Source: a virus. Taken from it: a stretch of DNA of 34,373 nucleotides. The notes beneath the pieces are model-generated. The model was not told the DNA's origin. It searched no databases and saw only the letters and a list, made by a program, of their open reading frames with translations. Position 1 is the first letter of the stretch. Every line of letters starts with the position of its first letter. The stretch spans positions 1 to 34,373 of the IMG/VR virus record IMGVR_UViG_3300009604_000036; one strand, given 5' to 3'. Both the position numbers and the translations under genes were made by a program. Positions 6,728 through 34,373 of the stretch are shown in pieces.

Positions 6728-7081
6728 TTATTTACGAAGCCAAGTCACAATTCGCCCGCACCGATCTTCAGGCTTTTCTAAGGTAAAACCTACTCCTTTA
6801 TTATTTTCAGTAGATAGACAAACGGCAAACCAAATATTTTCCATGCATCTTTTACGTAGAGGGTGGTAGCAATACACTTGTGCTGTACTGTTCATAAGTT
6901 CTAAACATTTTTGGCATACTTCATGATTTTCTAATACACCTGTAGCACAGCGCATAGACTTATGTATATACGGGCCAAGAGCTAATTGGCCTTCCTGTTC
7001 AATAAGATTAGCAGCTTGGTCAAATGTTAGAACATCTCCATTGCTAAACCCTATGGTTTTATTTTGAAACGCATCACTCAT
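6728..7081 (-). CDS. Cysteine-rich hypothetical protein, 117 aa
   Basis: A 117-residue protein with seven Cys, including CQKC (about 57-60) and a spaced C/H set that could form a metal site. The N-terminal half (SNGDVLTFDQAANLIEQEG) looks like a small helix-strand unit. The ATG at 7081 overlaps the stop of the phosphatase gene (TAATG), indicating translational coupling, so it may act in the same process. No family is recognised. Confidence 0.55.
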   Translation of the reverse strand: MSDAFQNKTIGFSNGDVLTFDQAANLIEQEGQLALGPYIHKSMRCATGVLENHEVCQKCLELMNSTAQVYCYHPLRKRCMENIWFAVCLSTENNKGVGFTLEKPEDRCGRIVTWLRK

Positions 7082-7557
7082 TAATCAATCCAGCTTCGAC
7101 GATCTACAGTAGATTCACGAGCTGATTGAACTATCTGATACGCTTCATCTAAAGTTTTTCCTTGGTATTTATGCAGGTACCACACCACAGTTAACGGGCT
7201 ACGTTCCATGCCCATGGCGCAATGTACTACGATTTTAGCGGTATCCGACTCGGTAATCATTTTATTGATTAAGGCAGCTAGGCCATCCAAGGTGTCACGT
7301 ACTGGACCTTTGTTGGGATTTACGTCGGCTTGAATTTGAGCACTAGATGTTATTTCCCCAGCAACATTTATAACGACGTATCCTTTGATTACTGCCTCAT
7401 CACATCCTTCATAGTCAGTAATACCGATTCTATCAGTGGCCCAATGGATATCATCAATATTGAATTCATCGGATACTGGTCGTCCAACTAGATGTTTAAG
7501 GCTCTTAAAACGAGATACAGACGGCTCAAACGTAAATCTATTGACGGGATTATTCAT
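7081..7557 (-). CDS. Dual-specificity (tyrosine) protein phosphatase-like
   Basis: A 158-residue protein with the CX5R signature VHCAMGMERS at 111-120 (nucleophile Cys113, Arg119), followed by the helix PLTVVWYL. Upstream strand YVVINVAGE matches the substrate-loop strand of DSPs, and Asp78 is a candidate general acid. The family removes phosphate from Ser/Thr/Tyr or from RNA and nucleotide 5' ends. I chose ATG at 7557; a GTG at 7566 extends it by 3 codons. The start overlaps the upstream gene by 8 nt. The target, phage or host, is unknown. Confidence 0.8.
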   Translation of the reverse strand: MNNPVNRFTFEPSVSRFKSLKHLVGRPVSDEFNIDDIHWATDRIGITDYEGCDEAVIKGYVVINVAGEITSSAQIQADVNPNKGPVRDTLDGLAALINKMITESDTAKIVVHCAMGMERSPLTVVWYLHKYQGKTLDEAYQIVQSARESTVDRRSWID

Positions 7558-7789
7558 TAGATACACGTGCTAAGGCATTTTCAACGTTATCTAATACATT
7601 CATGATTTTAGTCATTAATTCATCTCGTTGCTTCTTAGTTACTCGTTGGCTAGAGTTAGTTGTAGTAATGAAATGTTTTAAATCTGTAATCTCATTACAC
7701 ACATTAGTTATGATTACCTTCCTGTACGGATCTGATGTTTTAGAAGCATTATCATTGGTTTTGCGGAATAGATCTTGGAGAATAGACAT
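7550..7789 (-). CDS. Hypothetical protein, 79 aa, helical
   Basis: A 79-residue, charged, probably alpha-helical protein with a heptad-like C-terminal half (MTKIMNVLDNVENALARV). AAGGAAGG stands before ATG at 7789. It overlaps the phosphatase start. No family is recognised. It lies two genes downstream of the tubulin-like gene in the same transcript. Confidence 0.55.
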   Translation of the reverse strand: MSILQDLFRKTNDNASKTSDPYRKVIITNVCNEITDLKHFITTTNSSQRVTKKQRDELMTKIMNVLDNVENALARVSNE

Positions 7790-7803: not shown

Positions 7804-8073
7804 TTATTTTTGTGCTACTTGTTCAGATTTTTTTAACCATGCCTGAGCATTGACAAAATCAACCATTTCCCAAAATTGGTTATCTTTGTCTGGTTGTGGT
7901 AAGTCATATGTATATGTAAAACATTTATCATCATGCCCCGGTATGACACAAAAAGTAGGATTCCACTTTGTGTCATACCAGTCTTCTAAGCGTTGCGATG
8001 CTTTTTTATGAGAGCGTCCCATTCCCCATAAAATTAACGTCACCATTAATAAAGCCCATGCCAATATGCTCAT
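7804..8073 (-). CDS. Small N-terminally anchored membrane protein, 89 aa
   Basis: A hydrophobic segment at residues 3-18 (ILAWALLMVTLILWGM) followed by basic residues (RSHKK) fits a single signal anchor. The remaining 65 residues are polar with two Cys and would probably lie in the cytoplasm if the positive-inside rule holds. Its ATG at 8073 overlaps the stop of the tubulin-like gene by 1 nt, so the two are co-translated. A membrane partner for the filament protein is possible but inferred only from position. Confidence 0.6.
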   Translation of the reverse strand: MSILAWALLMVTLILWGMGRSHKKASQRLEDWYDTKWNPTFCVIPGHDDKCFTYTYDLPQPDKDNQFWEMVDFVNAQAWLKKSEQVAQK

Positions 8074-9518
8074 TACTTCACCGTATGCGAATAGTCAGAG
8101 TCAGTGGTAGATTTTAGTGATTCTTGCCATGCTGACGCAGATGTTTCAATAGTATTTTTAGTTTCTTGAGTTATTACAGGCGTCTTTGTTTGAAAGATAT
8201 TTTTAAAGCTGTCAATATCGGTTCTAGGGTCTGTGATGTTTGTTAACGGATATAGACGTGTGCAGTGCAGATATAATGGCCCCACCTTACGACCTACAAA
8301 AGCATTAGCATAGAGATTGACCGCACCCCATATAACTCGTCCTACGCCAATTGCCATCTTTGATAAGACATTATGCCTGATTGGCATATTTGGTATGTAC
8401 CTAATCGAAGTGTTACTAGGCATATTGGCTGAAGCCAAACCAAAGGTAGCATACGGATGGGTCTCAAAGAACCCTTCATTAATTAGAGCATTTTGAATTT
8501 GGGACTCTAGAACAGGAATTTCATCATAAGCTAAAGGCATGCTACAAAAAATCATGCTTCTAGTGTTATCGCTATGGTCGTTATATTTAGCTAAATCAAA
8601 TCGATTTTGCATAGTATCTTTGGCAGCTCTAATACCAAGTAAGCCTAATTCATCTGATTTACCACGTATTAGACGTGTTCGTCTAAATGGAGGTAGAAGG
8701 TTCCAGGATTTTTTAACTGGCAATCGGTAAGCGTTAATGCTACTCATACCTAACCATGAGCTTCGATTGACTCTAGTTAAGCTAGATACTACGTCAGTTA
8801 GCGTAGGACCACTTTGAGCACCTGACTGCGATACTGCTTCAATCGTAGCCAATGAACAAGCTAATTTATGGTCTGTAAGGAACTGGTCGCCCATGCGATC
8901 GTCAGTAACTAAGAATTTTTCATTGGGAAGAAGTTCCATAAACTCATCCCATATATCACGCATCTGGTCATGCAATGTAGGGTCTCGTGGTATATCCAAT
9001 ATAATTAGACTATGTGCTTGGGGAAAACGGTCACGAAGGCGGTTATGTAGATGTGCGCCTAGTAGAGAATGTGAGCCAAACCCCATAAAATGTATGATTA
9101 ATTGAGGAGGCGTCCCTAGTTGCTCAGATCTTTCGCCTACCTCATTAACGACATTATCCTGTTCTTGAAATAATGATCCAGCATAAGGTATATACCCATG
9201 TGGGTCCCTATGGAACCCTGTATCAGTAGGTATAAATTGCGGCAGGAATATCTCTGTGCCTAAGGACGATTTCATATTTCGTCCTTTAGCGGTGATGCGT
9301 CGGTTAGTGTCATTGTTGATGTCATACAATATGGCACTTTGCACTCTATCCAGACACCCAACATCGCCTAATCGTTCCATAGTGCCCCATGCTCGATTCA
9401 CTTGTGCGGTACCGCTACCGCACAGCATTAAGGGCATGGATACATTAGTTAACCAGTCTCCATCCAAACTTTCATGGACAGATAATCTATTTGACCTTAT
9501 CTTGAATTTATTAGCCAT
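8073..9518 (-). CDS. Divergent tubulin/FtsZ-superfamily-like protein
   Basis: A 481-residue protein whose motif order follows FtsZ/TubZ. Strand plus glycine loop LCGSGTAQVNR (about 32-42) is like T1. AILYDIN (62-68) is like the strand ending at T2. IIHFMGFGSHSLLGA (141-155) sits where GGGTGSG (T4) is expected but is degenerate. Then come DIPRDP (175-180), NEKFLVTDD (199-207) and a long helix, then LTDVVSSLTRV...SWLGMSS, resembling FtsZ DFADV..VM..G..MG. The C-terminal half has the alternating pattern of the activation domain. Nucleotide binding is doubtful given T4. TTAGGAG precedes ATG at 9518. The repeat boxes at 9574-9654 lie just upstream. I infer a filament or segregation protein; the fold assignment is by eye. 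Confidence 0.45.
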   Translation of the reverse strand: MANKFKIRSNRLSVHESLDGDWLTNVSMPLMLCGSGTAQVNRAWGTMERLGDVGCLDRVQSAILYDINNDTNRRITAKGRNMKSSLGTEIFLPQFIPTDTGFHRDPHGYIPYAGSLFQEQDNVVNEVGERSEQLGTPPQLIIHFMGFGSHSLLGAHLHNRLRDRFPQAHSLIILDIPRDPTLHDQMRDIWDEFMELLPNEKFLVTDDRMGDQFLTDHKLACSLATIEAVSQSGAQSGPTLTDVVSSLTRVNRSSWLGMSSINAYRLPVKKSWNLLPPFRRTRLIRGKSDELGLLGIRAAKDTMQNRFDLAKYNDHSDNTRSMIFCSMPLAYDEIPVLESQIQNALINEGFFETHPYATFGLASANMPSNTSIRYIPNMPIRHNVLSKMAIGVGRVIWGAVNLYANAFVGRKVGPLYLHCTRLYPLTNITDPRTDIDSFKNIFQTKTPVITQETKNTIETSASAWQESLKSTTDSDYSHTVK

Positions 9519-9704: not shown

Positions 9705-10886
9705 TTAGCAATCACACTTGAATTTGCCGTCCACTGCTGGGAAATGTGGAGGCTTGATGTGGTGAGTATGCCCCCCAATTTCAATGATATATGGCTTTGG
9801 TGGCGGAGTGCCGTAATGCAGCTCATATGCAACGTGATGCCAGTGGGCCAAGAAAATCTTACCAGCATACCTAGTAGCACGATTATGAATATGTCCAGGG
9901 GGTAGGAATCCTTTAGAGTTATACTTGTACGCTTCAGTGGACTTGTCTACTTTAGTCATATTTTCATATGCTATATCAGCATACAGGCCAGCTTCATTAC
10001 GCTGTATTTCTAGGAGCTTACGGTCAGCGTACATTTTGCCATAAATATCTGGCCCGTTAAACTTGGTAGTCTTTCCAGCTCGTTTTACAAATTGATCCCG
10101 TGCCTTCCATACTAATTGCTTTAACGAAGCATTATAAGGTCGCTTGGCTAGAACCTTAATCAGACCGCCTTTAGTTACAACAGAATCAGTGACTTCTTCT
10201 TCTTGTGCTTCTCGGTCTTCTTCGGTTAGTTCTTCTCCAGCAGCGGCCTTCTCTGCTAGTCTACGTTTGGCGTCAGCAGCAGCTGCTAAAACCTGTCGCT
10301 TGAGATTATCGGCACGTCGATTAGTAGCATTAGCTATCTGAGCAAGTTGCTCGTCAGTAACTTCAGTCTTAGCGGCACGTTGCTTGACGACAGCATTAAC
10401 AGCTGCCTCAGCCTTCACTCGGCCCAGCCACTCTGAAGTGGGATCCATCCCAGCAAAACGCCAGATATGTCCTGCTGTAGGAGCACGAGTAATATCAATT
10501 TCTGACATTAATCCAGCTGAGATTACTGGCCCAATTCCAGGTATGGATTCAGCCCAGTTACCGATACCATTGTTAGCGGAAAAAGCCGTTAATATCTTTT
10601 GGATATTATTCTCAGTAGCCGTTAGTCCTGCCAGAATAAATGAGAGCATGGATATGGACTCACCGGACTTCTCTAATGCCTTGTAACGATTGTTAACCTG
10701 AAGTCGGGCTTTCTGTATGCCGTAATAAGAGGAGACGATAAACCGAGTCTCTATCCGTGACATATTGACTGGGTCAAATCCAATCTTTTCTAGTGCGTCT
10801 TGACGAAAACGATTGATTACGTCTAGATGCCAAGGCTCATCGCCTTCTTCTTCGAAATCTAAGAGATCATTAATTTTTTTGACCAT
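9705..10886 (-). CDS. IS110-type Transposase_20 (HhH) domain protein lacking the DEDD domain
   Basis: A 393-residue protein. Residues about 110-150 match the C-terminal Transposase_20 domain of IS110/IS116 transposases: IPGIGPVISAGLMSEI, then RFAGMDP, a helix-hairpin-helix DNA-binding unit. About 155-245 is a highly charged, Ala/Glu/Arg-rich helical insert. The C-terminal part (YNASLKQLVWKARDQF, then a His-rich tail ending GKFKCDC) is unlike standard IS110. The N-terminal DEDD RuvC-like domain of true IS110 transposases is absent, and no element ends are visible, so I do not call this a transposon. It has its own promoter (10991-11019) and terminator (9655-9686). A DNA-binding or recombination role is inferred. 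Confidence 0.7.
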   Translation of the reverse strand: MVKKINDLLDFEEEGDEPWHLDVINRFRQDALEKIGFDPVNMSRIETRFIVSSYYGIQKARLQVNNRYKALEKSGESISMLSFILAGLTATENNIQKILTAFSANNGIGNWAESIPGIGPVISAGLMSEIDITRAPTAGHIWRFAGMDPTSEWLGRVKAEAAVNAVVKQRAAKTEVTDEQLAQIANATNRRADNLKRQVLAAAADAKRRLAEKAAAGEELTEEDREAQEEEVTDSVVTKGGLIKVLAKRPYNASLKQLVWKARDQFVKRAGKTTKFNGPDIYGKMYADRKLLEIQRNEAGLYADIAYENMTKVDKSTEAYKYNSKGFLPPGHIHNRATRYAGKIFLAHWHHVAYELHYGTPPPKPYIIEIGGHTHHIKPPHFPAVDGKFKCDC

Positions 10887-21243: not shown

Positions 21244-21489
21244 AAGAAGAAAGGTGGGTCTTCGAAGTCTTCGAAGAGTGGTGCGGTTGAAAAAGGTGTT
21301 ATGAGTGGAGGTCTTGCTCCAGGAGAAATTGCTATCGTTGATGGGGATGAAAAGATTGCGGGTGCTGGTGCAACTGATTTAGGCCCAGCTGTGCCTTCTA
21401 ACCCTCAAGGCGTCAATGAAGTTTCATACGGACGGGCCTCACGACCACCGGGCGCATTACCAGGGAGTGAAAATGCTCCATATATCTGA
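21244..21489 (+). other. Same-frame continuation of the 20014-21243 gene after TGA
   Basis: The frame continues past TGA with a Lys/Gly/Ser-rich stretch (KKKGGSSKSSKSG) and about 68 further residues, ending at TGA 21487-21489, 17 nt into the protease gene. An ATG at 21301 with AAAAGG 5 nt ahead could start a separate 62-residue protein. The lysine/serine linker right after TGA has coding-like composition, so readthrough, a sequencing error or a recent nonsense mutation are all possible. Confidence 0.45.
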
Positions 21490-24076
21490 TGTAATATTAG
21501 AGATAGATACATTGATGAAAGATATAACTGACATTGATATTGTCGGTTTATATCAAGATAAGGATCATGCGATAGAGCTATCTCATAAAGATGGCATATT
21601 TTATGTTCGTTTAGATGGTGCTAATCTTTATGCCGGAAAAGATGGAAGTAAGGCTACTTCCATGTTTTATGATCAAATTGCTCAAATTCATGATGATGCA
21701 GATCGTGGAACTGACCCAGATTTTGCAGCTCTACGAGAGATTCTTCAAGCTCGAAACGACCATGTAAAAGATATGTTGGCGGCTATTGGCCATGAGCGTT
21801 TAGCTGCTTCTCTTGATGGAATCGAAATGGTTAAAGAATTTAATATGGAATCATTTCAAAATATCATTAAACAGAATATGACGACTTTAGACGTATTAGA
21901 TTTTGCCAATTACCGTCCTTCTGAGAGGGAAAACGAAGAGTGTCATACTTGTATCTTTTTTGCAGCTGGTGGATTTTGCACGAAGATGGACGTACCGGTC
22001 AAAGAAGAGATGGTGTGTGATTGGTTCCGACCATTGCCCATGGCTGAGAAAAATGAGGAGTGGTCCCATGTTTCTCACCAAAAATGGGAAGAGGCAGAAC
22101 ATGAAGAAGAACATGACCATGGCATGGAAGGTGTGCAAAAAGATGTTAGCAAGGACCTAATTTACACCAGTGCCGAAGATAATTTAGAATCCCCTGCTAA
22201 TTTCAGCACGAGCAGCCGTAAACCTAATGTGATAATGAGGGAATTTACTCCCATTGATGCGTCGGAAGGCTTTCAGATACTAGCTAAAAATGCTAGTGAT
22301 GAGGGAATAGTTGAAGTACAGCTTATCCAACGTGATGGACATTGGGATGTTATAACCAAACAACGTGATTATTCGGATTTAGGTGATCCATTTCAATCTG
22401 TTGGTGAATCTTATATTCCTAAAAAGGTAAAGCTTCGAGAGGATGAGGATAAGGAAGGAGTCGATAAACTTCATGAAGTCCAGGGTATCGAGAAGCAATC
22501 TAATGAGGGTGGATTGGGCATAGATGACCCTGAAGCTCTTAATGATGGAACTGCAGCGTCTTCTCAGCATTATCGTAGGATTAAGGAAGACGAAGAGAAT
22601 CGTAAGTCTTCATTAGCTATGAAAGCATATGCTAATGACCCTAAAGAAGTTCAGAAGCCTATCGATCCTGATGATGATGGGCGAGAAGCACTTTCTAGTG
22701 CGGAAACAGGTACAGGTACTCAAGCCTTTTCATCTGGTGCTGTTATAGATATGCCAGATGAAGCTTTAAATAGTAAAGCGTCTGGCGGTACTGGTAGTGA
22801 GGGCGTTGAAGGTGGAGGTGATGGAAGCATTACGATGATTGCACCGCCTGATGCGTCAGATCAAGATTTAGAATCTGATTATGATTCTAAATTAAATCCA
22901 AAGAATCGTGCTCCAGTTATGAAACAAGATGGTGGTGGCGGAGCTGGCGGTTTTGGTGGTGATGGAGGTGGTGGGGGAACTGCAATGACCGCTGGAGGTA
23001 GTTCAGGATCCGATCCAACGCATACTGATACTCATGGCGGTAGAACTGGTCGTGAGAAGAAGTATGATTCTTCTCTTAAACTTAAAGATTCTATGGATGC
23101 GGGTTCGTATGAGGGGGTATCACAGCTGCCGTATCCTCAAGATGATGATACTCGTCCAGCTAGAACGGTTGAGCGACATAAGCCTGGTGATTCTGAGGAT
23201 GAAGAAGGTCGAGCTAGTGATGACGAGCATTCGATTCCAATGCACCAGCAACCTATTGGTGAAGGATATGCAAGTAGTTATGTAATTGCGGAAGAAGAGC
23301 AATATAGTCCTACTACAATGAGTGAAAGACCTGAGCATGAGAAGGTACGTCGTCAATTTATTGACGAAGATAATCGTCTTAGAAGTGTAAATGACCCCGC
23401 AGCGGAACAATTCACTAATTTATCCATGTTATCTCAAGATTTACAGTCTCATTTTTTGCGTAGCACTGATACGCCTGAGATATTAAAAAATAATGATTTG
23501 TTTAAAGTTCTGACTAGTAATTCTATTAAAAAAATGGATACGGGACGTACTTTAGTAGTCGCTGGATGGGGTAACTACTATATGGTGGATCGTGAGGGCC
23601 ATCGTTTGGGATTAGAGGGCATGCGTCGTGCCTTGAACAAGTTTCTTGGCCAGAAAGAATTTGCTAATATGAACATATTTCATTCTGGCATTCAAGTTGG
23701 TCAAATTTTACGGCGATTTATTGATGATAATGGTAAGGAATGGCGCACTGAGGTTAGACCTGAAGGTTTATTTGTAGTTGCAGCTTTTAGGACTGATTTA
23801 GAAGTATCTAGAAAGGCTATGTCTGAAGTTTTACGTGGTGGTATGAGAGGGTTTTCTATCGCTGGTAATGCTAAATCAAAGGAAATGCGTTGTGAGCATG
23901 GAAAATGCTGGACTGAGGTAAATGATTTAGAAATCTATGAAGTAACGCTCTGCGTTGCGCCCATGAATCCAAAATCGTATATAACTGATGTTATTCAAAA
24001 ACCTGATCCAATGATTTGTCCTGAATGCTATGATGTTGATCAATTAGAATTTGATTCCAGTTTAAGAACTAAATAA
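21473..24076 (+). CDS. Prohead protease (S78-like) fused to a long N-terminal region
   Basis: An 867-residue protein; I chose ATG 21473 after AGGGAG instead of the longer open frame from 21416. The last ~230 residues match S78 HK97-type prohead proteases: FHSGIQVG (candidate His), RGGMRGFSIAG (candidate nucleophile Ser) and LEIYEVTLCVAPMNP (third motif). Near residue 157-182 a Cys4 set (CHTC, FCTK, VCDWF) could bind metal. Residues about 220-620 are acidic, Gly/Ser-rich and probably disordered. The protease cleaves scaffold and capsid protein during head maturation. Confidence 0.85.
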   Translation: MLHISDVILEIDTLMKDITDIDIVGLYQDKDHAIELSHKDGIFYVRLDGANLYAGKDGSKATSMFYDQIAQIHDDADRGTDPDFAALREILQARNDHVKDMLAAIGHERLAASLDGIEMVKEFNMESFQNIIKQNMTTLDVLDFANYRPSERENEECHTCIFFAAGGFCTKMDVPVKEEMVCDWFRPLPMAEKNEEWSHVSHQKWEEAEHEEEHDHGMEGVQKDVSKDLIYTSAEDNLESPANFSTSSRKPNVIMREFTPIDASEGFQILAKNASDEGIVEVQLIQRDGHWDVITKQRDYSDLGDPFQSVGESYIPKKVKLREDEDKEGVDKLHEVQGIEKQSNEGGLGIDDPEALNDGTAASSQHYRRIKEDEENRKSSLAMKAYANDPKEVQKPIDPDDDGREALSSAETGTGTQAFSSGAVIDMPDEALNSKASGGTGSEGVEGGGDGSITMIAPPDASDQDLESDYDSKLNPKNRAPVMKQDGGGGAGGFGGDGGGGGTAMTAGGSSGSDPTHTDTHGGRTGREKKYDSSLKLKDSMDAGSYEGVSQLPYPQDDDTRPARTVERHKPGDSEDEEGRASDDEHSIPMHQQPIGEGYASSYVIAEEEQYSPTTMSERPEHEKVRRQFIDEDNRLRSVNDPAAEQFTNLSMLSQDLQSHFLRSTDTPEILKNNDLFKVLTSNSIKKMDTGRTLVVAGWGNYYMVDREGHRLGLEGMRRALNKFLGQKEFANMNIFHSGIQVGQILRRFIDDNGKEWRTEVRPEGLFVVAAFRTDLEVSRKAMSEVLRGGMRGFSIAGNAKSKEMRCEHGKCWTEVNDLEIYEVTLCVAPMNPKSYITDVIQKPDPMICPECYDVDQLEFDSSLRTK

Positions 24077-24168: not shown

Positions 24169-25236
24169 ATGGCTTCCAATACTACAGAGCTTCTGCCTAT
24201 TCTGAAGGCTTTACGTGAGTATATCGTCAAAGAGTATGGGGTGAATTATCCGCCTCATGTTCGTGGCGAAGATGCTTCTGGTAAAGATCTTCCGAGCAAT
24301 TGGGTAGATAAACTAGGACCTCTGAGTGGTGGGGATACGGTTGGCCGTGATTCTCATGGCTCTCAGGGAACTAAGAGCACTCGTTCTGGTGCACAGGGCA
24401 CTGACCCATATATCCACAAGTCTGAGATTGAAGCGATGTTGAAAGACTTCGCCAAGCATTTTGTTGATGGACAAGATGTTCAGGCTGGCTCAGAACGTGC
24501 CGGGGGCATGCGAAGTGCTGGTGGATACTCATATCCTGGCGATGGCCAGCGCATTCCTGAAGGTCGTGGACTTGGAAAAGAAAACCACGAAGGGATGGAA
24601 GACGACGATGATATGATGGATGACATGGTTGACGATGTCGAAGATGATGAAGTGATTGACGATATTGACGACGATGAAATGGGTGACGAAGAGGACTTTT
24701 CGGAAGAAGAAGGTATGGAGAAAAATTACATGTCTCGATCTGCCGATGGAATTTCTGAGTTGCTAAAGGACATTAAAGGTCTTTTGTCCTCTCGCCATCA
24801 GGAAAAGCAGGAATATGCTGCTATTCAATCTGATATTAGCGACTTGAAGAAGTCTGTTAATACTCAAGTCCGTGATGGTATCAAAAAGGGATTGAAGCAA
24901 TTCAATCTTAATCCATCTCGTGGCGACACCATGTCTCGTTTGGAAGAAGGCCAAGGATATTCAGATGGGATACTCGGTGCTTCTGGTGCTCCTCAGCCTG
25001 TCGTAATGCCCGATCAGCGGATTGGGGTTGAAGGCGAGTCTTTCCAGAAGAGTGCCGATGAAGAGGGCCAAGAACAGTTCGTTAACGGAATTGAAGAAGT
25101 TACGAATCGCACGGATGTGAATGATCTTCGTGGCCATTTCAAACTAGTCAATGGTATGCGGAATCAGACTGGTGAACTGTCACCTCACACTTTGTACTAC
25201 TATCCCACCCAGCGTGGTAACAGGGGGGGTAAATAA
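24169..25236 (+). CDS. Capsid scaffold-like protein, 355 aa
   Basis: AAGGAGGGG precedes the ATG. The central section (about residues 143-185) is a run of Asp/Glu/Met, followed by a predicted coiled coil (ISELLKDIKGLL...AAIQSDISDLKKSVNTQV). N- and C-termini are polar and Gly-rich. Size, charge and position between protease and capsid protein fit a scaffolding protein; the sequence itself is not recognised. The stop abuts the capsid start. Confidence 0.65.
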   Translation: MASNTTELLPILKALREYIVKEYGVNYPPHVRGEDASGKDLPSNWVDKLGPLSGGDTVGRDSHGSQGTKSTRSGAQGTDPYIHKSEIEAMLKDFAKHFVDGQDVQAGSERAGGMRSAGGYSYPGDGQRIPEGRGLGKENHEGMEDDDDMMDDMVDDVEDDEVIDDIDDDEMGDEEDFSEEEGMEKNYMSRSADGISELLKDIKGLLSSRHQEKQEYAAIQSDISDLKKSVNTQVRDGIKKGLKQFNLNPSRGDTMSRLEEGQGYSDGILGASGAPQPVVMPDQRIGVEGESFQKSADEEGQEQFVNGIEEVTNRTDVNDLRGHFKLVNGMRNQTGELSPHTLYYYPTQRGNRGGK

Positions 25237-26549
25237 TGGCTACTAGCAATGATATTAGCATAGCTCAATATATCTCATCGGCAGAGCGGAACCTTCGTAG
25301 TTCCATGATGCCTCCAGGCTACTTCGCTAAGCAGACTTATCTGCAAGTAGCGGATGTATTTACTGCTACCTATGGTCGAAAGGTCTGGGACGCATTAAAT
25401 AACCAGACTCGTTTCTGGAATATTCTTCGTAAAGTACAGTGGGGGCCAACGACTGGTTGGCGTTTGCGGTCTGATAGGGGTGATAATCGCTCTCGGCCCG
25501 TAACGGAGACTGGTTCGATTCCCACTATTGATGTCTCTAACTACGTCAATGTGGATTCTGCTCCACGTATCGTAGCGACTGACTTCGGTGTCTCACTCAA
25601 ATCCCAGATCATGAGCGGTCTGGAAGGTGGTATGGGGGACAACCTTGCAGTAGAGCAAGAAGCGGCTGCGAGGGACCACATCAAAGAGCTGAACCAGGAA
25701 CTCCTGCTTCGCTCCAATACCATCTGTACTACCGCTGGTGCATCTGGAACTGCTGAGATTCTAAGTGCTGGCAACACCTTCCGAGTTGGTGACACCATAG
25801 GTGGAACCACTTTGGGAGATGGCGGTATCACTTATAATGGTCTCGACACTGATAGTGACGCTACCTTTAGTGGTGGCGGTAACTTGACGGATGGCGAGAT
25901 TATGTACGTCAAAGCCCGTGCTGGTTTCACTTCTCTTGACGACATTGTCGAACAAGATGCTCGTGTTGTAGCCGGTGTCACCGTTACCAACGGTCCTGAC
26001 GTATACAACCAAGCTACTCGTGCTGCTGGTGGACATTTAGCGGCTGCTACTGTTCTCGGCAATAGTGGAACTGGTCGGAACTTGACATTGTCTCTTCTAG
26101 ACCAGGCCATACGGGAAGTTAGGATTAATGGTGCTGATCCAGACGTTATTCTGATGGGTTATGACCAGTTTGACCGTCTTTCTTCTCTGTTGCAGGCCCA
26201 GCAACGGTACTTGGACTGGGGTGAGTTCGTGGTTAAGGTGGGCGATGAGTCCACTCTACCAGGTTCGCATGCTGGTTTCCAGGTAGCTACTTATAGGGGC
26301 ATCCCTGTTATAGTGGATCCTGATGCTCAGGGTTCCTATACTTCGGCTGATTCTAACCTTGGTAGCAACGTGTATGTCATGGATACTCGGTACATGGAAG
26401 TCGCTATTGCTGCTCCTACGCAGTATATCGACAACCGTGACTTCTTCCAGGCAAATGCGTTTGTCCTACGTGGACTCTTTTACACCATTGGTGAACTGAG
26501 AGCTTTGCGTTTGGATACCAATGCTAAGATTACTGACCTGAACGCCTAA
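25236..26549 (+). CDS. Major capsid protein (HK97 fold-like)
   Basis: A 437-residue protein immediately downstream of the scaffold-like gene and upstream of a strong hairpin. It has the composition of an HK97-type capsid protein: an N-terminal helix (SISAQYISSAERNL-like region), a beta-rich middle with an Ala/Gly/Thr-rich insertion (about 165-260), and a C-terminal part with NRDFFQANAFVLRGLF. Codon use is more C-rich than in flanking genes, consistent with high expression. It forms the icosahedral shell. The fold is inferred; no residue-level signature is decisive. Confidence 0.85.
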   Translation: MATSNDISIAQYISSAERNLRSSMMPPGYFAKQTYLQVADVFTATYGRKVWDALNNQTRFWNILRKVQWGPTTGWRLRSDRGDNRSRPVTETGSIPTIDVSNYVNVDSAPRIVATDFGVSLKSQIMSGLEGGMGDNLAVEQEAAARDHIKELNQELLLRSNTICTTAGASGTAEILSAGNTFRVGDTIGGTTLGDGGITYNGLDTDSDATFSGGGNLTDGEIMYVKARAGFTSLDDIVEQDARVVAGVTVTNGPDVYNQATRAAGGHLAAATVLGNSGTGRNLTLSLLDQAIREVRINGADPDVILMGYDQFDRLSSLLQAQQRYLDWGEFVVKVGDESTLPGSHAGFQVATYRGIPVIVDPDAQGSYTSADSNLGSNVYVMDTRYMEVAIAAPTQYIDNRDFFQANAFVLRGLFYTIGELRALRLDTNAKITDLNA

Positions 26550-27401: not shown

Positions 27402-27629
27402 ATGAGCTTACTGGGCCGTTTAGCTTCTTACTTTACGTTTAAAGTTAAGAGAAAGAATGTAGGTAAGTATAATTTTGGGGCAATTCATTTTGATAATTAT
27501 GAATTACCTATAGTCGGGTTTAAGCATCCTCATATCGGACCGCCTAAGCTTTTTTATGTAGATGCCGCTACTCTAAATAAGCTCTCAGGAAGTGATGATG
27601 GCAGCACCAAAAATAAGAACACAAATTGA
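27402..27629 (+). CDS. Hypothetical protein, 75 aa
   Basis: Starts 1 nt after the previous stop, so translation is coupled. A basic 75-residue protein with an N-terminal hydrophobic segment (LLGRLASYFTF) that may be a short amphipathic helix. The 3' end overlaps the next gene by 32 nt. No family is recognised. Confidence 0.5.
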   Translation: MSLLGRLASYFTFKVKRKNVGKYNFGAIHFDNYELPIVGFKHPHIGPPKLFYVDAATLNKLSGSDDGSTKNKNTN

Positions 27630-27927
27630 GCTGGAACAGCCGTTAACGTCATTCCAAGGTTTCACTAAAACGACATCAGATGCCACTGCGACGACTATTT
27701 TAGATGTTGCTACTGTCATGGAAGAGGCTAATCGCCTTACTTTTGTTGTTGAATTGGGTGATTTATATGTGAATTTTGGAGCTGCTGCAACTAGCGATGG
27801 TAATTCAATGCTGATACCAGCTGGAACTGGTTATACAGAAGATAAAGTACGTGTAACTGGTATCATTTCAGTTATGAGGGCTGGTACCACTAATGGAAGA
27901 ATTCGTGGTGGAGTGTGGGGAAGATAA
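27598..27927 (+). CDS. Tandem-duplicate structural protein, copy 1 (109 aa)
   Basis: A 109-residue beta-rich protein ending in NGRIRGGVWGR. AGGA lies 7 nt before the chosen ATG at 27598; 27592 (GTG) and 27595 (ATG) are alternatives. It is a paralogue of the next gene: IRTQIELEQP, TTSDATATTILDV, MEEANRLTFVV, DLYVNFG, SMLIPAGTGY and the terminus align throughout. No family is known. Probably a minor virion protein, given the location. Confidence 0.6.
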   Translation: MAAPKIRTQIELEQPLTSFQGFTKTTSDATATTILDVATVMEEANRLTFVVELGDLYVNFGAAATSDGNSMLIPAGTGYTEDKVRVTGIISVMRAGTTNGRIRGGVWGR

Positions 27928-28272
27928 ATGTCTATACAATCTGGTAGTACCTATGGCCTAAGGACTATCATTGAGTTAAAACAGCCATATGATCAGTTTC
28001 GGCCTTTTTCTTTGACGACATCTGATGAGACAGCTACTACTGTTTTAAATGTGTCAGACCATATGGAAGAGGCTAATCTTATAACACTTGTTGTAGATAA
28101 AAATGATTTATATGTAAGTTTCGGTAGTGATGCTACCGATGATGGTACTTCTATGTTAATTCCAGCAGGTACTGGGTATTCGGATACAAATATAAGTTTT
28201 AAAGGTTCAATCTCAGTAATACGAGCAAACCCAGGTAATGGACGAATTGTTGGGGCTATTTGGGGAAGATAA
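27928..28272 (+). CDS. Tandem-duplicate structural protein, copy 2 (114 aa)
   Basis: A 114-residue paralogue of the gene immediately upstream; they share blocks such as TTSDETATT, MEEAN, SMLIPAGTGY and a C-terminal WGR ending, with about half the residues identical by eye. The start ATG abuts the previous stop. N-terminal tail differs. Together the pair may form a hetero-oligomer, or one is a decorating variant of the other. Confidence 0.6.
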   Translation: MSIQSGSTYGLRTIIELKQPYDQFRPFSLTTSDETATTVLNVSDHMEEANLITLVVDKNDLYVSFGSDATDDGTSMLIPAGTGYSDTNISFKGSISVIRANPGNGRIVGAIWGR

Positions 28273-31247: not shown

Positions 31248-32749
31248 TGGCTATCACCTATTTAGCTGGTAATAATATTGCTGGAACAGCTAGTGACCGA
31301 AGTGGTTTAACTACAACTTATTTATTGACGGGAACAACGTTTCTTGAGACTGATACAGATGACTTATATCAGTGGGATGGCGACAGTTGGAATGTAATTT
31401 CATCTAATACTGTTGCTGAGACATTAAGTGGTAAAACTTTTACTACTCCGCAAATAAATGATTCGGCTACTGACCATCAATACGTTTTCGCAGTAGGTAA
31501 CCTTGCTGCCGATAGGACAGTCACTCTTCCAGTTCTTACTGGAAATGATACGTTTGTTTTTGAAGCGCATACTCAAACCTTTACAAATAAGACTATGAGC
31601 GGGTCTGGTAATACTTTTTCTAATATTCCTACCTCGGCTCTTACTGGTACTGCCTTTGCAGTTACTGATGGTTCTACAGCGTCAAATATTGCTTCTGGCG
31701 GTACATTAACATTTGCTGCTACTGCCAATGAAACGACGGTAGCTCAATCTGGTGGAACAGTTACGATTGGCTTACCAAATGACGTTACTATAGGTGGCAT
31801 TTTAACTGTTACTGGAAATCTTACTGTTAATGGAACTACTACAACAGTCAATTCTACTACTATGACTGTAGATGATCCTATTATAACGTTAGGTGGGGAC
31901 GTAGCTCCCGGCTCAGACGATAACAAGGATAGAGGAGTTGAGTTTAGATACCATGACGGCTCAGCTAGAGTAGGATTTTTTGGATATGATGATTCAGTAG
32001 GGGTATTTACTGGTTTTACGGCAGCTACTAATACTTCAGAGGTATTCTCTGGTACGGTCATGAATGCTACATTTGGTAACATTGTTGGCACTCTAACTAC
32101 TGCGGCTCAGGGAAATATTACTTCTTTAGGTACTTTATCGTCGATTGTCGTCTCTGGCTCTGGGACAGTGGGTGGTTCTGACATAGTCACACTGGCCGCT
32201 ACTCAAACTTTAGCAGCTAAGACCCTTACTGCTCCTAAATTTGTCAATACTGGATTTATTGCAGATGCTAACGGCAATGAACAAATTATCTTTGCCACTA
32301 CGTCTAGTGCGGTCAATGAGATTACAATAACGAATGGAGCTACTGGTAATTCAGCCAGTATTACGGCAAGTGGCGAGACGAATACTGGCATTAAACTTAT
32401 TGGTAAAGGTACAAGTGGCATAACGCTCACTAATGCGACTGCAAATGGGGCGTTTTTAGAGTTTGATACTAAAGCTGCTCCAGCAGATCCATCAACTGAA
32501 TTTGCTAGGATGTATTTGAAAGAGGTGGATGCCAATAATAATGCCATAGCCGTTAAGATTCAGAAGGGTGGAAGTGTGGTTGAGGTTGAAATTACTTCCC
32601 CTAAAGCAGTTTGCGCTGAATGTGGTAGTCGAGATGGAGCGAAAGATCCATTATATGATTTTGAGCGTGGAGTAATGGTGTTGGATTTGTGGTGTGGCCA
32701 CTCTTTCGAAGTTCCAATGCAATGGAGTCAGATAAATGGCAATAGTTAG
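31247..32749 (+). CDS. Modular tail fibre protein with C-terminal Cys module, 500 aa
   Basis: The N-terminal ~70 residues (YLAGNNIAG...TNTDDLYQWDGDSWN) match the N-terminus of the next fibre; the last ~95 (PADPSTEFARMYLKEVD...CAECGS...LWCGHSFEV) match the previous fibre. The middle is Thr/Gly/Asn-rich beta repeats (GILTVTGNLTVNGTTTTV and similar). The stop overlaps the next start by 14 nt. It is a host-recognition fibre by architecture; the receptor is unknown. Confidence 0.75.
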   Translation: MAITYLAGNNIAGTASDRSGLTTTYLLTGTTFLETDTDDLYQWDGDSWNVISSNTVAETLSGKTFTTPQINDSATDHQYVFAVGNLAADRTVTLPVLTGNDTFVFEAHTQTFTNKTMSGSGNTFSNIPTSALTGTAFAVTDGSTASNIASGGTLTFAATANETTVAQSGGTVTIGLPNDVTIGGILTVTGNLTVNGTTTTVNSTTMTVDDPIITLGGDVAPGSDDNKDRGVEFRYHDGSARVGFFGYDDSVGVFTGFTAATNTSEVFSGTVMNATFGNIVGTLTTAAQGNITSLGTLSSIVVSGSGTVGGSDIVTLAATQTLAAKTLTAPKFVNTGFIADANGNEQIIFATTSSAVNEITITNGATGNSASITASGETNTGIKLIGKGTSGITLTNATANGAFLEFDTKAAPADPSTEFARMYLKEVDANNNAIAVKIQKGGSVVEVEITSPKAVCAECGSRDGAKDPLYDFERGVMVLDLWCGHSFEVPMQWSQINGNS

Positions 32750-34373
32750 ATATGCCGGAAATAGGATGACAGGAGTTAGTGGTGACACTAAGCCTACTTC
32801 CAACTTAATTGCCGGTACTACTTTTCAAGAGACTAATACCGATGATTTATATGTTTGGGATGGATCTTCGTGGAATATAGTTGCCGGTAATACTGTCGCA
32901 CAGACGTTTAGCAATAAAACTTTAACGAGTCCAGTACTCAATACTGGGTTATCTGGCACTGCTTTTCTTGATGAAGATGATTTTGCCTCTGATTCTGCTA
33001 CTAAGGCAGCTTCGCAGCAGAGTATTAAAGCGTATGTAGCCAGTCAGGTTTCAGGTTCTCAAAATGTATTCAGTACGGTTGCTGTTTCGGGGCAGGATAA
33101 CGTTGTAGCCGATGGTACCACGGATACGCTTACTCTAGTGGCTGGCAGTAACATGACCATCACCACTACAGCAGGGTCAGATTCAGTAACTTTTGCTGCT
33201 GCCGGTTCTAGCACTGTAACCGTTACTGATAATGAGAGCACTAATGAAAATAATCTTATTATTTTCGTAGCTGATGCGGCTACCAGCACTGGGGCACATG
33301 ACTTAGAAATGGATGGGGATCTTCATTATAACCCTAGTACTGGCACATTAACGTCAACCGTTTTTGTTGGAGCTTTAACAGGTAATGCTTCGGGCACAGC
33401 GGCTACTGTGACTGGAGCAGCCCAGACTGCGATTACCTCTTTGGGAACGCTAACTGCACTTCAAGTTGATAATTTAAACATCAACGCAAATACCATCAGT
33501 GCTACATCAGGAGCACTGAATATTACGCCCGCTGCTGGAAGTGCGATAGTACTGGACGGAACTATAAATGTAGATGCTGGGGTGGTTACTGGTGCTACGA
33601 GCATCACATCTACTGCATTTGTCGGTGGATTGACTGGCAATGTAACCGGCAATGCGTCAGGTACCGCCGCTACCGTCACAGGTGCAGCGCAAACGGCGAT
33701 TACATCATTAGGGACGTTGACTGCACTTCAAGTCGATAATCTTAATATAAATGGTAATACTGTTTCATCTACGGCTGGTACTGATTTACTTATTACTCCA
33801 TTAGCTGGGCAGCAAATAGTACTGGATGGGACAATAATTATCGATGCTGGGGTAGTTACCGGGGCAACAAGCATTACATCTACCGCATTTGTGGGCACAA
33901 TTGATGGTGTTGTGGGGGGAAACACGCCTGCTGCAATCACAGGCACTACAATTGATGCTAATACTGACTTTACGGTTGGAAGTACGGTAATCACTGATGA
34001 TGTGGTCACTTTTACTCCTAGTACCAACGATACAGTGGTATTGACTGCTGCAACTAATGGATCTTTCTCTCTTGTCACTACTGATGCAGCTGCTGCCGCT
34101 GCGAATATTCAAATAACTGCAGATGGGACAGTAGATATAGATTCAGCAGGAGTTTTAACCCTCGATTCTGGGGCCGCAATTAATATAGAGCCTGCCGCTG
34201 GCTCTGCAATTTTACTTGATGGCACAATTAGCATAGATGCTGGAGTTGTAACAGGCGCAACAAGTATTACCTCTACAGCCTTTGTTGGCGATATAACTGG
34301 CGATGTTACAGGTACTGCGGATGTTGCTACGGTTGCCACTACGGTAACCATTACTGACAACGAGAGTACAAAC
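32736..34373 (+). CDS. Modular tail fibre with repeated modules, partial (546 codons, open at the window end)
   Basis: Reads from ATG 32736 to the last base without a stop. The N-terminus matches the preceding fibre (DDLYVWDGSSWN), and an adjacent LDEDDFASDSATKAASQQSIKAY segment matches the 410-residue fibre. The rest is a beta-rich repeat, T-A-L-Q-V-D-N-L-N-I-N-x-N-T, ITPAAGSAIVLDGTI..DAGVVTGATSITSTAFVG, typical of marine and freshwater phage long fibres. Full size unknown. Confidence 0.75.
   Translation, partial: MAIVRYAGNRMTGVSGDTKPTSNLIAGTTFQETNTDDLYVWDGSSWNIVAGNTVAQTFSNKTLTSPVLNTGLSGTAFLDEDDFASDSATKAASQQSIKAYVASQVSGSQNVFSTVAVSGQDNVVADGTTDTLTLVAGSNMTITTTAGSDSVTFAAAGSSTVTVTDNESTNENNLIIFVADAATSTGAHDLEMDGDLHYNPSTGTLTSTVFVGALTGNASGTAATVTGAAQTAITSLGTLTALQVDNLNINANTISATSGALNITPAAGSAIVLDGTINVDAGVVTGATSITSTAFVGGLTGNVTGNASGTAATVTGAAQTAITSLGTLTALQVDNLNINGNTVSSTAGTDLLITPLAGQQIVLDGTIIIDAGVVTGATSITSTAFVGTIDGVVGGNTPAAITGTTIDANTDFTVGSTVITDDVVTFTPSTNDTVVLTAATNGSFSLVTTDAAAAAANIQITADGTVDIDSAGVLTLDSGAAINIEPAAGSAILLDGTISIDAGVVTGATSITSTAFVGDITGDVTGTADVATVATTVTITDNESTN
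33381..34300 (+). repeat. Diverged internal repeats in the last fibre gene
   Basis: The segment beginning GGTAATGCTTC at 33381 recurs from 33648 (GGCAATGCGTC), a step of 267 bp or 89 codons. A sub-unit coding for DGTI..DAGVVTGATSITSTAFVG occurs at about 33555, 33823 and 34218. Third-position differences are many, so the copies are old. They encode shaft modules of the fibre. Confidence 0.7.

What the first reader, a model, noticed from the sequence alone, without database searches (positions are those of the whole stretch)
8073..9518. Divergent tubulin/FtsZ-like protein with a degenerate GTP loop
The order of motifs (glycine loop, beta strand ending DIN, T4-position loop, DIPRDP, helix, D-V-V-S-S-L...W-L-G-M) follows FtsZ and TubZ, but the T4 loop reads GFGSHS instead of GGTGSG. 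It could be a filament protein with changed nucleotide handling. Phage tubulins (PhuZ, TubZ) are known, so a remote cousin in another phage lineage would be worth having.
Basis: inference. Interest (0 to 1): 0.7.

Follow-up and report, generated by a model that had tools for sequence, protein, structure and literature searches.

The report
Possible degenerate tubulin in archaeal virus
A gene in a marine tailed virus, probably of archaea, encodes an orphan protein whose predicted shape resembles tubulin and FtsZ, the cell's filament proteins, but with a damaged-looking nucleotide-binding loop; the resemblance is plausible but not proven.

Summary
No sequence method shows it to be a tubulin: Pfam, PHROGs, NCBIfam and PDB sequence searches find nothing, and FtsZ/PhuZ profile tests do not beat decoys, while the same tests do link PhuZ to FtsZ. 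Structure favours the idea: in two low-confidence single-sequence AlphaFold models the closest solved structures are mostly tubulins. For residues 22-290, 43 of the 50 best entries are tubulins (Z 9.8-11.1); the other seven are the Rossmann enzyme G6PD, whose best chain ranks first (Z 11.6), so the families tie. Glycine loops after the first and fourth strands favour tubulin. If it is one, its T4 loop (GFGSHSL for GGGTGTG) and T7 loop (GPTLTD for NVDFAD) are both degenerate. The virus lineage's capsid protein matches archaeal tailed viruses. The gene is accessory: two close relatives carry an Hsp20 gene in its place. Best reading: a highly diverged tubulin-fold protein without a normal GTPase cycle. 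Fold likely; membership in FtsZ, PhuZ or TubZ unproven.

The parts
8073..9518 (-). 481-aa ORF, candidate divergent tubulin/FtsZ-fold protein
9393..9422 (-). T1-like loop CGSGTAQVNR (residues 33-42) after predicted strand S1
   Evidence: sequence; predicted strand 29-34
9303..9323 (-). end of S2 and following loop, DINNDTN (residues 66-72)
   Evidence: sequence; strand predicted at 61-66
9207..9224 (-). T3-like stretch DTGFHR (residues 99-104), compare PhuZ G-x-G-x-x-R
   Evidence: MAFFT alignment with 11 PhuZ proteins; best T3 block position, but not significant
9057..9083 (-). T4-position loop GFGSHSLLG (residues 146-154); FtsZ has GGGTGTG, PhuZ GGGSGS
8979..8996 (-). DIPRDP after predicted strand S5 (residues 175-180)
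   Evidence: sequence; strand 169-176
8790..8810 (-). T7-position stretch GPTLTDV (residues 237-243): one aspartate (D242) kept, the FtsZ D209 and N207 positions lost
   Evidence: sequence compared with E. coli FtsZ NVDFADV, aligned by eye
8385..8561 (-). possible second domain (residues 320-378): MIFCSMPL / EIPVLESQIQNALINEG / YATFGLASA / SIRYI, resembling FtsZ S7-H9-S8-S9 by eye
   Evidence: sequence only; inference, not tested by structure
7804..8073 (-). 89-aa protein with N-terminal membrane segment, start overlapping the stop of the candidate gene; weak counterpart in two relatives
   Evidence: 21-23% identity
7550..7789 (-). 79-aa protein with counterpart in relatives
   Evidence: 24% identity
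7081..7566 (-). dual-specificity phosphatase, conserved in relatives that lack the candidate gene
9705..10886 (-). IS110-type transposase-like protein conserved at the same place in relatives; upstream border of the variable slot
25236..26549 (+). major capsid protein used to place the virus

Best explanation
The ORF is a very diverged protein with the tubulin/FtsZ fold, carried as an accessory gene by a tailed virus of marine archaea. Its T4 loop (GFGSHSL) and T7 loop (GPTLTD) are both degenerate, so it most likely does not run the usual cycle of GTP-driven assembly and hydrolysis. I think it most likely works by contact with other tubulin-family filaments, capping or co-assembling with the host's FtsZ or CetZ and so disturbing host division or shape during infection. 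Supported here: the gene, its motifs, its variable genomic slot and the archaeal-type capsid. Suggested by models: the fold. Inferred only: loss of the GTPase cycle, the partner and the effect.
For: Single-sequence AlphaFold models give a Rossmann-like order S1-H1-S2...H3-S4-H4-S5-H5-S6-H6. With the full-length model Foldseek ranks tubulins, gamma-tubulin, TubZ and CetZ among the best hits (probability up to 1.0), and all 50 VIA-align entries are tubulins, Z 7.0-8.1. With residues 22-290 alone, 43 of 50 entries are tubulins, Z 9.8-11.1, about 160-230 of 269 residues, most starting at tubulin residue 1 or 2; CetZ, two FtsZ entries and a tubulin are in the Foldseek top ten. Glycine loops after strands 1 and 4 suit tubulins, whose phosphates bind at T4, rather than classical dinucleotide Rossmann enzymes (established knowledge). 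N. maritimus FtsZ, with AGKAGSA at T4 and no T7 loop, does not polymerise (PMC3684127). The gene sits in a conserved operon, in a slot holding other genes in relatives.
Against: Model confidence is low (pLDDT 36 and 40). G6PD ties with tubulin (Z up to 11.6) and other Rossmann enzymes appear. No sequence-profile test is significant, and no homologue was found to build an alignment. The second domain is unsupported except by eye. Nothing links it to a host filament.
Confidence: 0.5

Rival explanations
1. It is a Rossmann-fold protein of another family (dehydrogenase, nucleotidyl- or glycosyltransferase type), and the tubulin likeness only reflects the common 321456 sheet order.
For: G6PD Z 9.9-11.6; NMN adenylyltransferase and G6PD rank first and second; NAD synthetases are mixed with tubulins. 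No significant sequence link to FtsZ or PhuZ.
Against: No Pfam, NCBIfam or PDB sequence match to any Rossmann family. A second glycine loop after strand 4 is not typical of such enzymes. Tubulins fill most VIA rows with about 160-230 aligned residues against 171-198 for G6PD.
Confidence: 0.3
2. It is a functional viral cytoskeletal protein like PhuZ that positions viral DNA or capsids, with an unusual but working nucleotide site.
For: The T4 loop GFGSHSLLG reads most like PhuZ GGGSGSVIGP, and MAFFT places TGFHR on the PhuZ T3 loop. In 201phi2-1 and phiKZ a dual-specificity phosphatase lies close behind PhuZ, as here. One T7 aspartate is kept.
Against: PhuZ profile scores are not above decoys. 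The phosphatase is present in relatives without the gene. PhuZ-invariant positions (T4 glycines, first T7 aspartate, T5 asparagine) are changed. Known PhuZ proteins tested are 311-344 aa; this one has 481.
Confidence: 0.15
3. It is a novel or unrelated fold; the low-confidence models are misleading.
For: pLDDT under 50 for most residues; VIA notes that Z 7-8 is typical of models without a clear match.
Against: Two separate predictions both recover an alternating alpha/beta order and tubulin matches; Z near 11 is above that background.
Confidence: 0.1

Closest known systems
FtsZ / CetZ / tubulin N-terminal GTPase domain
   Same: Predicted order of strands and helices, glycine loops after S1 and S4, spacing S4-S5-S6, an aspartate at the T7 position
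   Different: No significant sequence similarity; T4 positions 2, 5 and 7 and the T7 residues N207 and D209 (E. coli FtsZ numbering, aligned by eye) are changed; long insertion between S2 and H3
PhuZ of phiKZ-like jumbo phages
   Same: Viral; T4 reads G-x-G-S-x-S-x-x-G; T3-like G-x-x-R; dual-specificity phosphatase nearby
   Different: 481 aa against about 315; invariant T4 and T7 residues of PhuZ replaced; profile score not above decoys; archaeal rather than jumbo-phage lineage; no chimallin-type context tested
Nitrosopumilus maritimus FtsZ-like protein Nmar_1262 (PMC3684127)
   Same: Tubulin-family relative with lost GTP-binding signature (AGKAGSA) and no T7 loop
   Different: Cellular gene; its sequence could not be fetched and compared here
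Tubulin/FtsZ-like proteins of Borg elements (PMC12660748)
   Same: Tubulin-like protein inferred from structure prediction on a mobile element of archaea
   Different: Borgs belong to Methanoperedens and are not tailed viruses; sequences not compared here

Membership tests
Tubulin/FtsZ superfamily | Fold of the N-terminal GTPase domain (parallel sheet, H1-H7) | tested here: inconclusive
   Tubulins dominate VIA hits (Z 9.8-11.1) but G6PD ties and pLDDT is 40
Tubulin/FtsZ superfamily | T4 signature [GAS]GG[ST]G[STA]G | tested here: not met
   GFGSHSL at residues 146-152
Tubulin/FtsZ superfamily | T7 loop NxDxxD/E | tested here: not met
   GPTLTD at 237-242; only the last acidic residue is kept (aligned by eye)
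Tubulin/FtsZ superfamily | Significant profile similarity | tested here: inconclusive
   Pfam none; profile alignment z 1.4 against decoy maximum 3.6-5.2, while PhuZ against FtsZ gives z 3-7; small profiles, single query
Tubulin/FtsZ superfamily | C-terminal activation domain after H7 | not tested
PhuZ | Similarity to the PhuZ profile | tested here: inconclusive
   hhalign rank 28 of 211 among decoys; block z 0.2
PhuZ | PhuZ-invariant T4 glycines and T7 aspartates | tested here: not met
   F147 and H150 replace the T4 glycines, T239 the first T7 aspartate
TubZ | Partition operon with TubR and tubC | not tested
   No dedicated search for a TubR-like gene or tubC repeats was made around the gene
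Tailed virus of archaea (HVTV-1 / magrovirus capsid clade) | Capsid protein of that clade | tested here: met
   tblastn hits only haloarchaeal tailed viruses (E down to 4e-7); the clade with marine archaeal viruses is described in PMC8651126; host not shown directly

The most novel reading that the evidence does not exclude
A tailed virus of marine archaea encodes a pseudo-tubulin that has lost canonical GTP binding and hydrolysis and acts on host FtsZ/CetZ filaments, or assembles by another route: a kind of viral tubulin that I found described nowhere in the papers searched.
Probability: 0.25. Interest if true: 0.75.

Novelty: new variant of a known kind. Interest (0 to 1): 0.42.

Why it matters
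Viral tubulins studied so far (PhuZ, TubZ) are GTPases of bacteriophages. A tubulin-fold protein without the usual nucleotide signature in an archaeal virus would widen the known range of the family and give a handle on how archaeal viruses act on host division or internal organisation. Because the fold is not proven and no relatives were found, the practical value now is as a candidate for metagenome-wide homologue search and expression.

Tried and rejected
Homologue searches with exact 8-mers and two degenerate T4 patterns in viral contigs found nothing real; seven C-terminal matches are short hits; the three read are in long proteins that look like tape-measure proteins. Genome contigs, phages (the one weak hit lies in a DNA-polymerase-like ORF) and plasmids gave nothing. 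66 related viral records hold no copy by the tool's first look, and PF00091 rings in none of the viral records tried. The capsid alignment search in genome contigs gave only a spurious 32-residue match, so the host was not linked. A TopIB-like gene in the 141-kb relative hinted at Thaumarchaeota, but its only PDB match is annotated as a putative type I topoisomerase that I take, from memory, to be bacterial, so I dropped it. The 201phi2-1-like order tubulin - two small genes - phosphatase was rejected as evidence because the phosphatase is there without the tubulin-like gene. BFVD gave no meaningful match.

Full report
What is there. The ORF at 8073-9518 is real and lies on the minus strand: 481 aa, ATG start, with AGGAG upstream, and a TAA stop sharing one base with the ATG of the next gene. 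Its GC content (0.411) matches the contig (0.409).

Where it is. The window is a 34.4-kb linear virus record. Its capsid protein (25236-26549) matches only haloarchaeal tailed viruses among phage records and 79 loci in viral contigs; from memory these look marine, but no habitat was shown. Liu et al. 2021 describe such a mixed clade of marine archaeal viruses and Druskaviridae (PMC8651126). An archaeal host is therefore likely, not shown. Two relatives that cover the same region, a 141-kb record (L081) and a 31-kb record (L089), share the phosphatase, two small genes and the IS110-type gene. Between the small genes and the IS110-type gene they carry an Hsp20-like gene and, in L081, a 59-aa ORF, not the tubulin-like gene (Hsp20 shown by Pfam for L081 only, the L089 copy is its look-alike). 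So the gene is accessory, at a variable site.

Sequence tests. Pfam, PHROGs, NCBIfam and the PDB sequences give no match. Profiles from five FtsZ and eleven PhuZ proteins do not pick the ORF out: hmmsearch, hhalign rank 28 of 211 for PhuZ and 175 of 211 for FtsZ, ordered-block score z 0.2, profile alignment z 1.4 or lower while decoys reach 3.4-5.2. The same tests give z 3-9 for FtsZ against PhuZ, so they can see superfamily links. A post hoc motif pair (strand + G.G loop, then strand + G.[GA][ST].[STA] at the right spacing) is rare, 3 of 20,000 shuffles, but was defined with the query in view and misses more than half of true members.

Structure tests. Two AlphaFold models from the single sequence have low confidence: full length pLDDT 36, pTM 0.30; residues 22-290 pLDDT 40.5, pTM 0.45. 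Both show the alternating order S1-H1-S2...H3-S4-H4-S5-H5-S6-H6. Foldseek with the full model lists tubulins, gamma-tubulin, TubZ and CetZ among the best hits, mixed with NAD synthetases; VIA-align gives 50 of 50 entries as tubulins at Z 7.0-8.1. With the domain model, VIA gives 43 tubulin entries (Z 9.8-11.1, roughly 160-230 of 269 residues, most beginning at tubulin residue 1 or 2) and seven G6PD entries (Z 9.9-11.6), the best of which ranks first. Foldseek with that model ranks an NMN adenylyltransferase and G6PD first, with FtsZ third, CetZ sixth, FtsZ eighth and tubulin tenth. Rows that differ by less than 1 in Z are tied, so tubulin is favoured by number and coverage, not separated; tubulins are also very numerous in the PDB, which inflates their count. 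Classical Rossmann enzymes and tubulins share the sheet order; what speaks for tubulin is a second glycine loop after strand 4, where tubulins bind phosphate (established knowledge). Residues 320-378 resemble the FtsZ second domain by eye only.

Nucleotide site. Aligned on the loop, FtsZ GGGTGTG corresponds to GFGSHSL, so positions 2, 5 and 7 change; FtsZ NVDFAD corresponds to GPTLTD, keeping only the last acid. In PhuZ the same two T4 glycines and both T7 aspartates are invariant across eleven proteins. A precedent for such decay is N. maritimus FtsZ, with AGKAGSA at T4 and no T7 loop, which did not form filaments when expressed in yeast (PMC3684127).

Mechanism. A tubulin-fold protein with these loops probably does not cycle GTP normally. 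The option I rate most likely is contact with host FtsZ/CetZ filaments (capping, co-assembly), with an effect on host division; this is inference without direct evidence. A PhuZ-like positioning filament is the main functional rival, and another Rossmann family the main structural rival.

Novelty. Borg elements of archaea carry 'less confidently' annotated tubulin/FtsZ-like genes (PMC12660748), and phage tubulins are well known. In the papers searched I found no tubulin-like protein of an archaeal tailed virus, but subscription journals are not covered. I file it as a new variant of a known kind, conditional on the fold.

Noticed in passing
window 9705-10886; L081 16539-17639; L089 16189-17301; L088 1-816: An IS110-type (Transposase_20) protein is conserved at about 47-49% identity at the same place in related viruses, so it may be a domesticated, non-mobile gene.
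   Followed up: partly
window 7081-7566; L103 7488-8027; L120 3527-4009: A dual-specificity phosphatase lies two genes behind the candidate; a phosphatase also lies behind PhuZ in 201phi2-1 (two genes between) and phiKZ (adjacent).
   Followed up: partly
window 21416-24076: 886-aa protein with a weak prohead-protease match near its C terminus (residues 783-857), perhaps a fusion of two structural proteins.
   Followed up: no
window 27592-27927 and 27928-28272: Two neighbouring genes are paralogues: each matches both copies in a related virus.
   Followed up: no
window 32736-34373; L085 3588-10784: The last ORF runs off the window and matches a roughly 2400-aa ORF of a relative, likely a large tail-fibre protein; repeated matches of short ORFs there suggest internal repeats.
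   Followed up: no
L115 12000-17916; L116 11310-12845 (141-kb relative): The relative encodes ribonucleotide reductase, a TopIB-like topoisomerase and a CCA-adding/poly(A) polymerase-like protein.
   Followed up: partly
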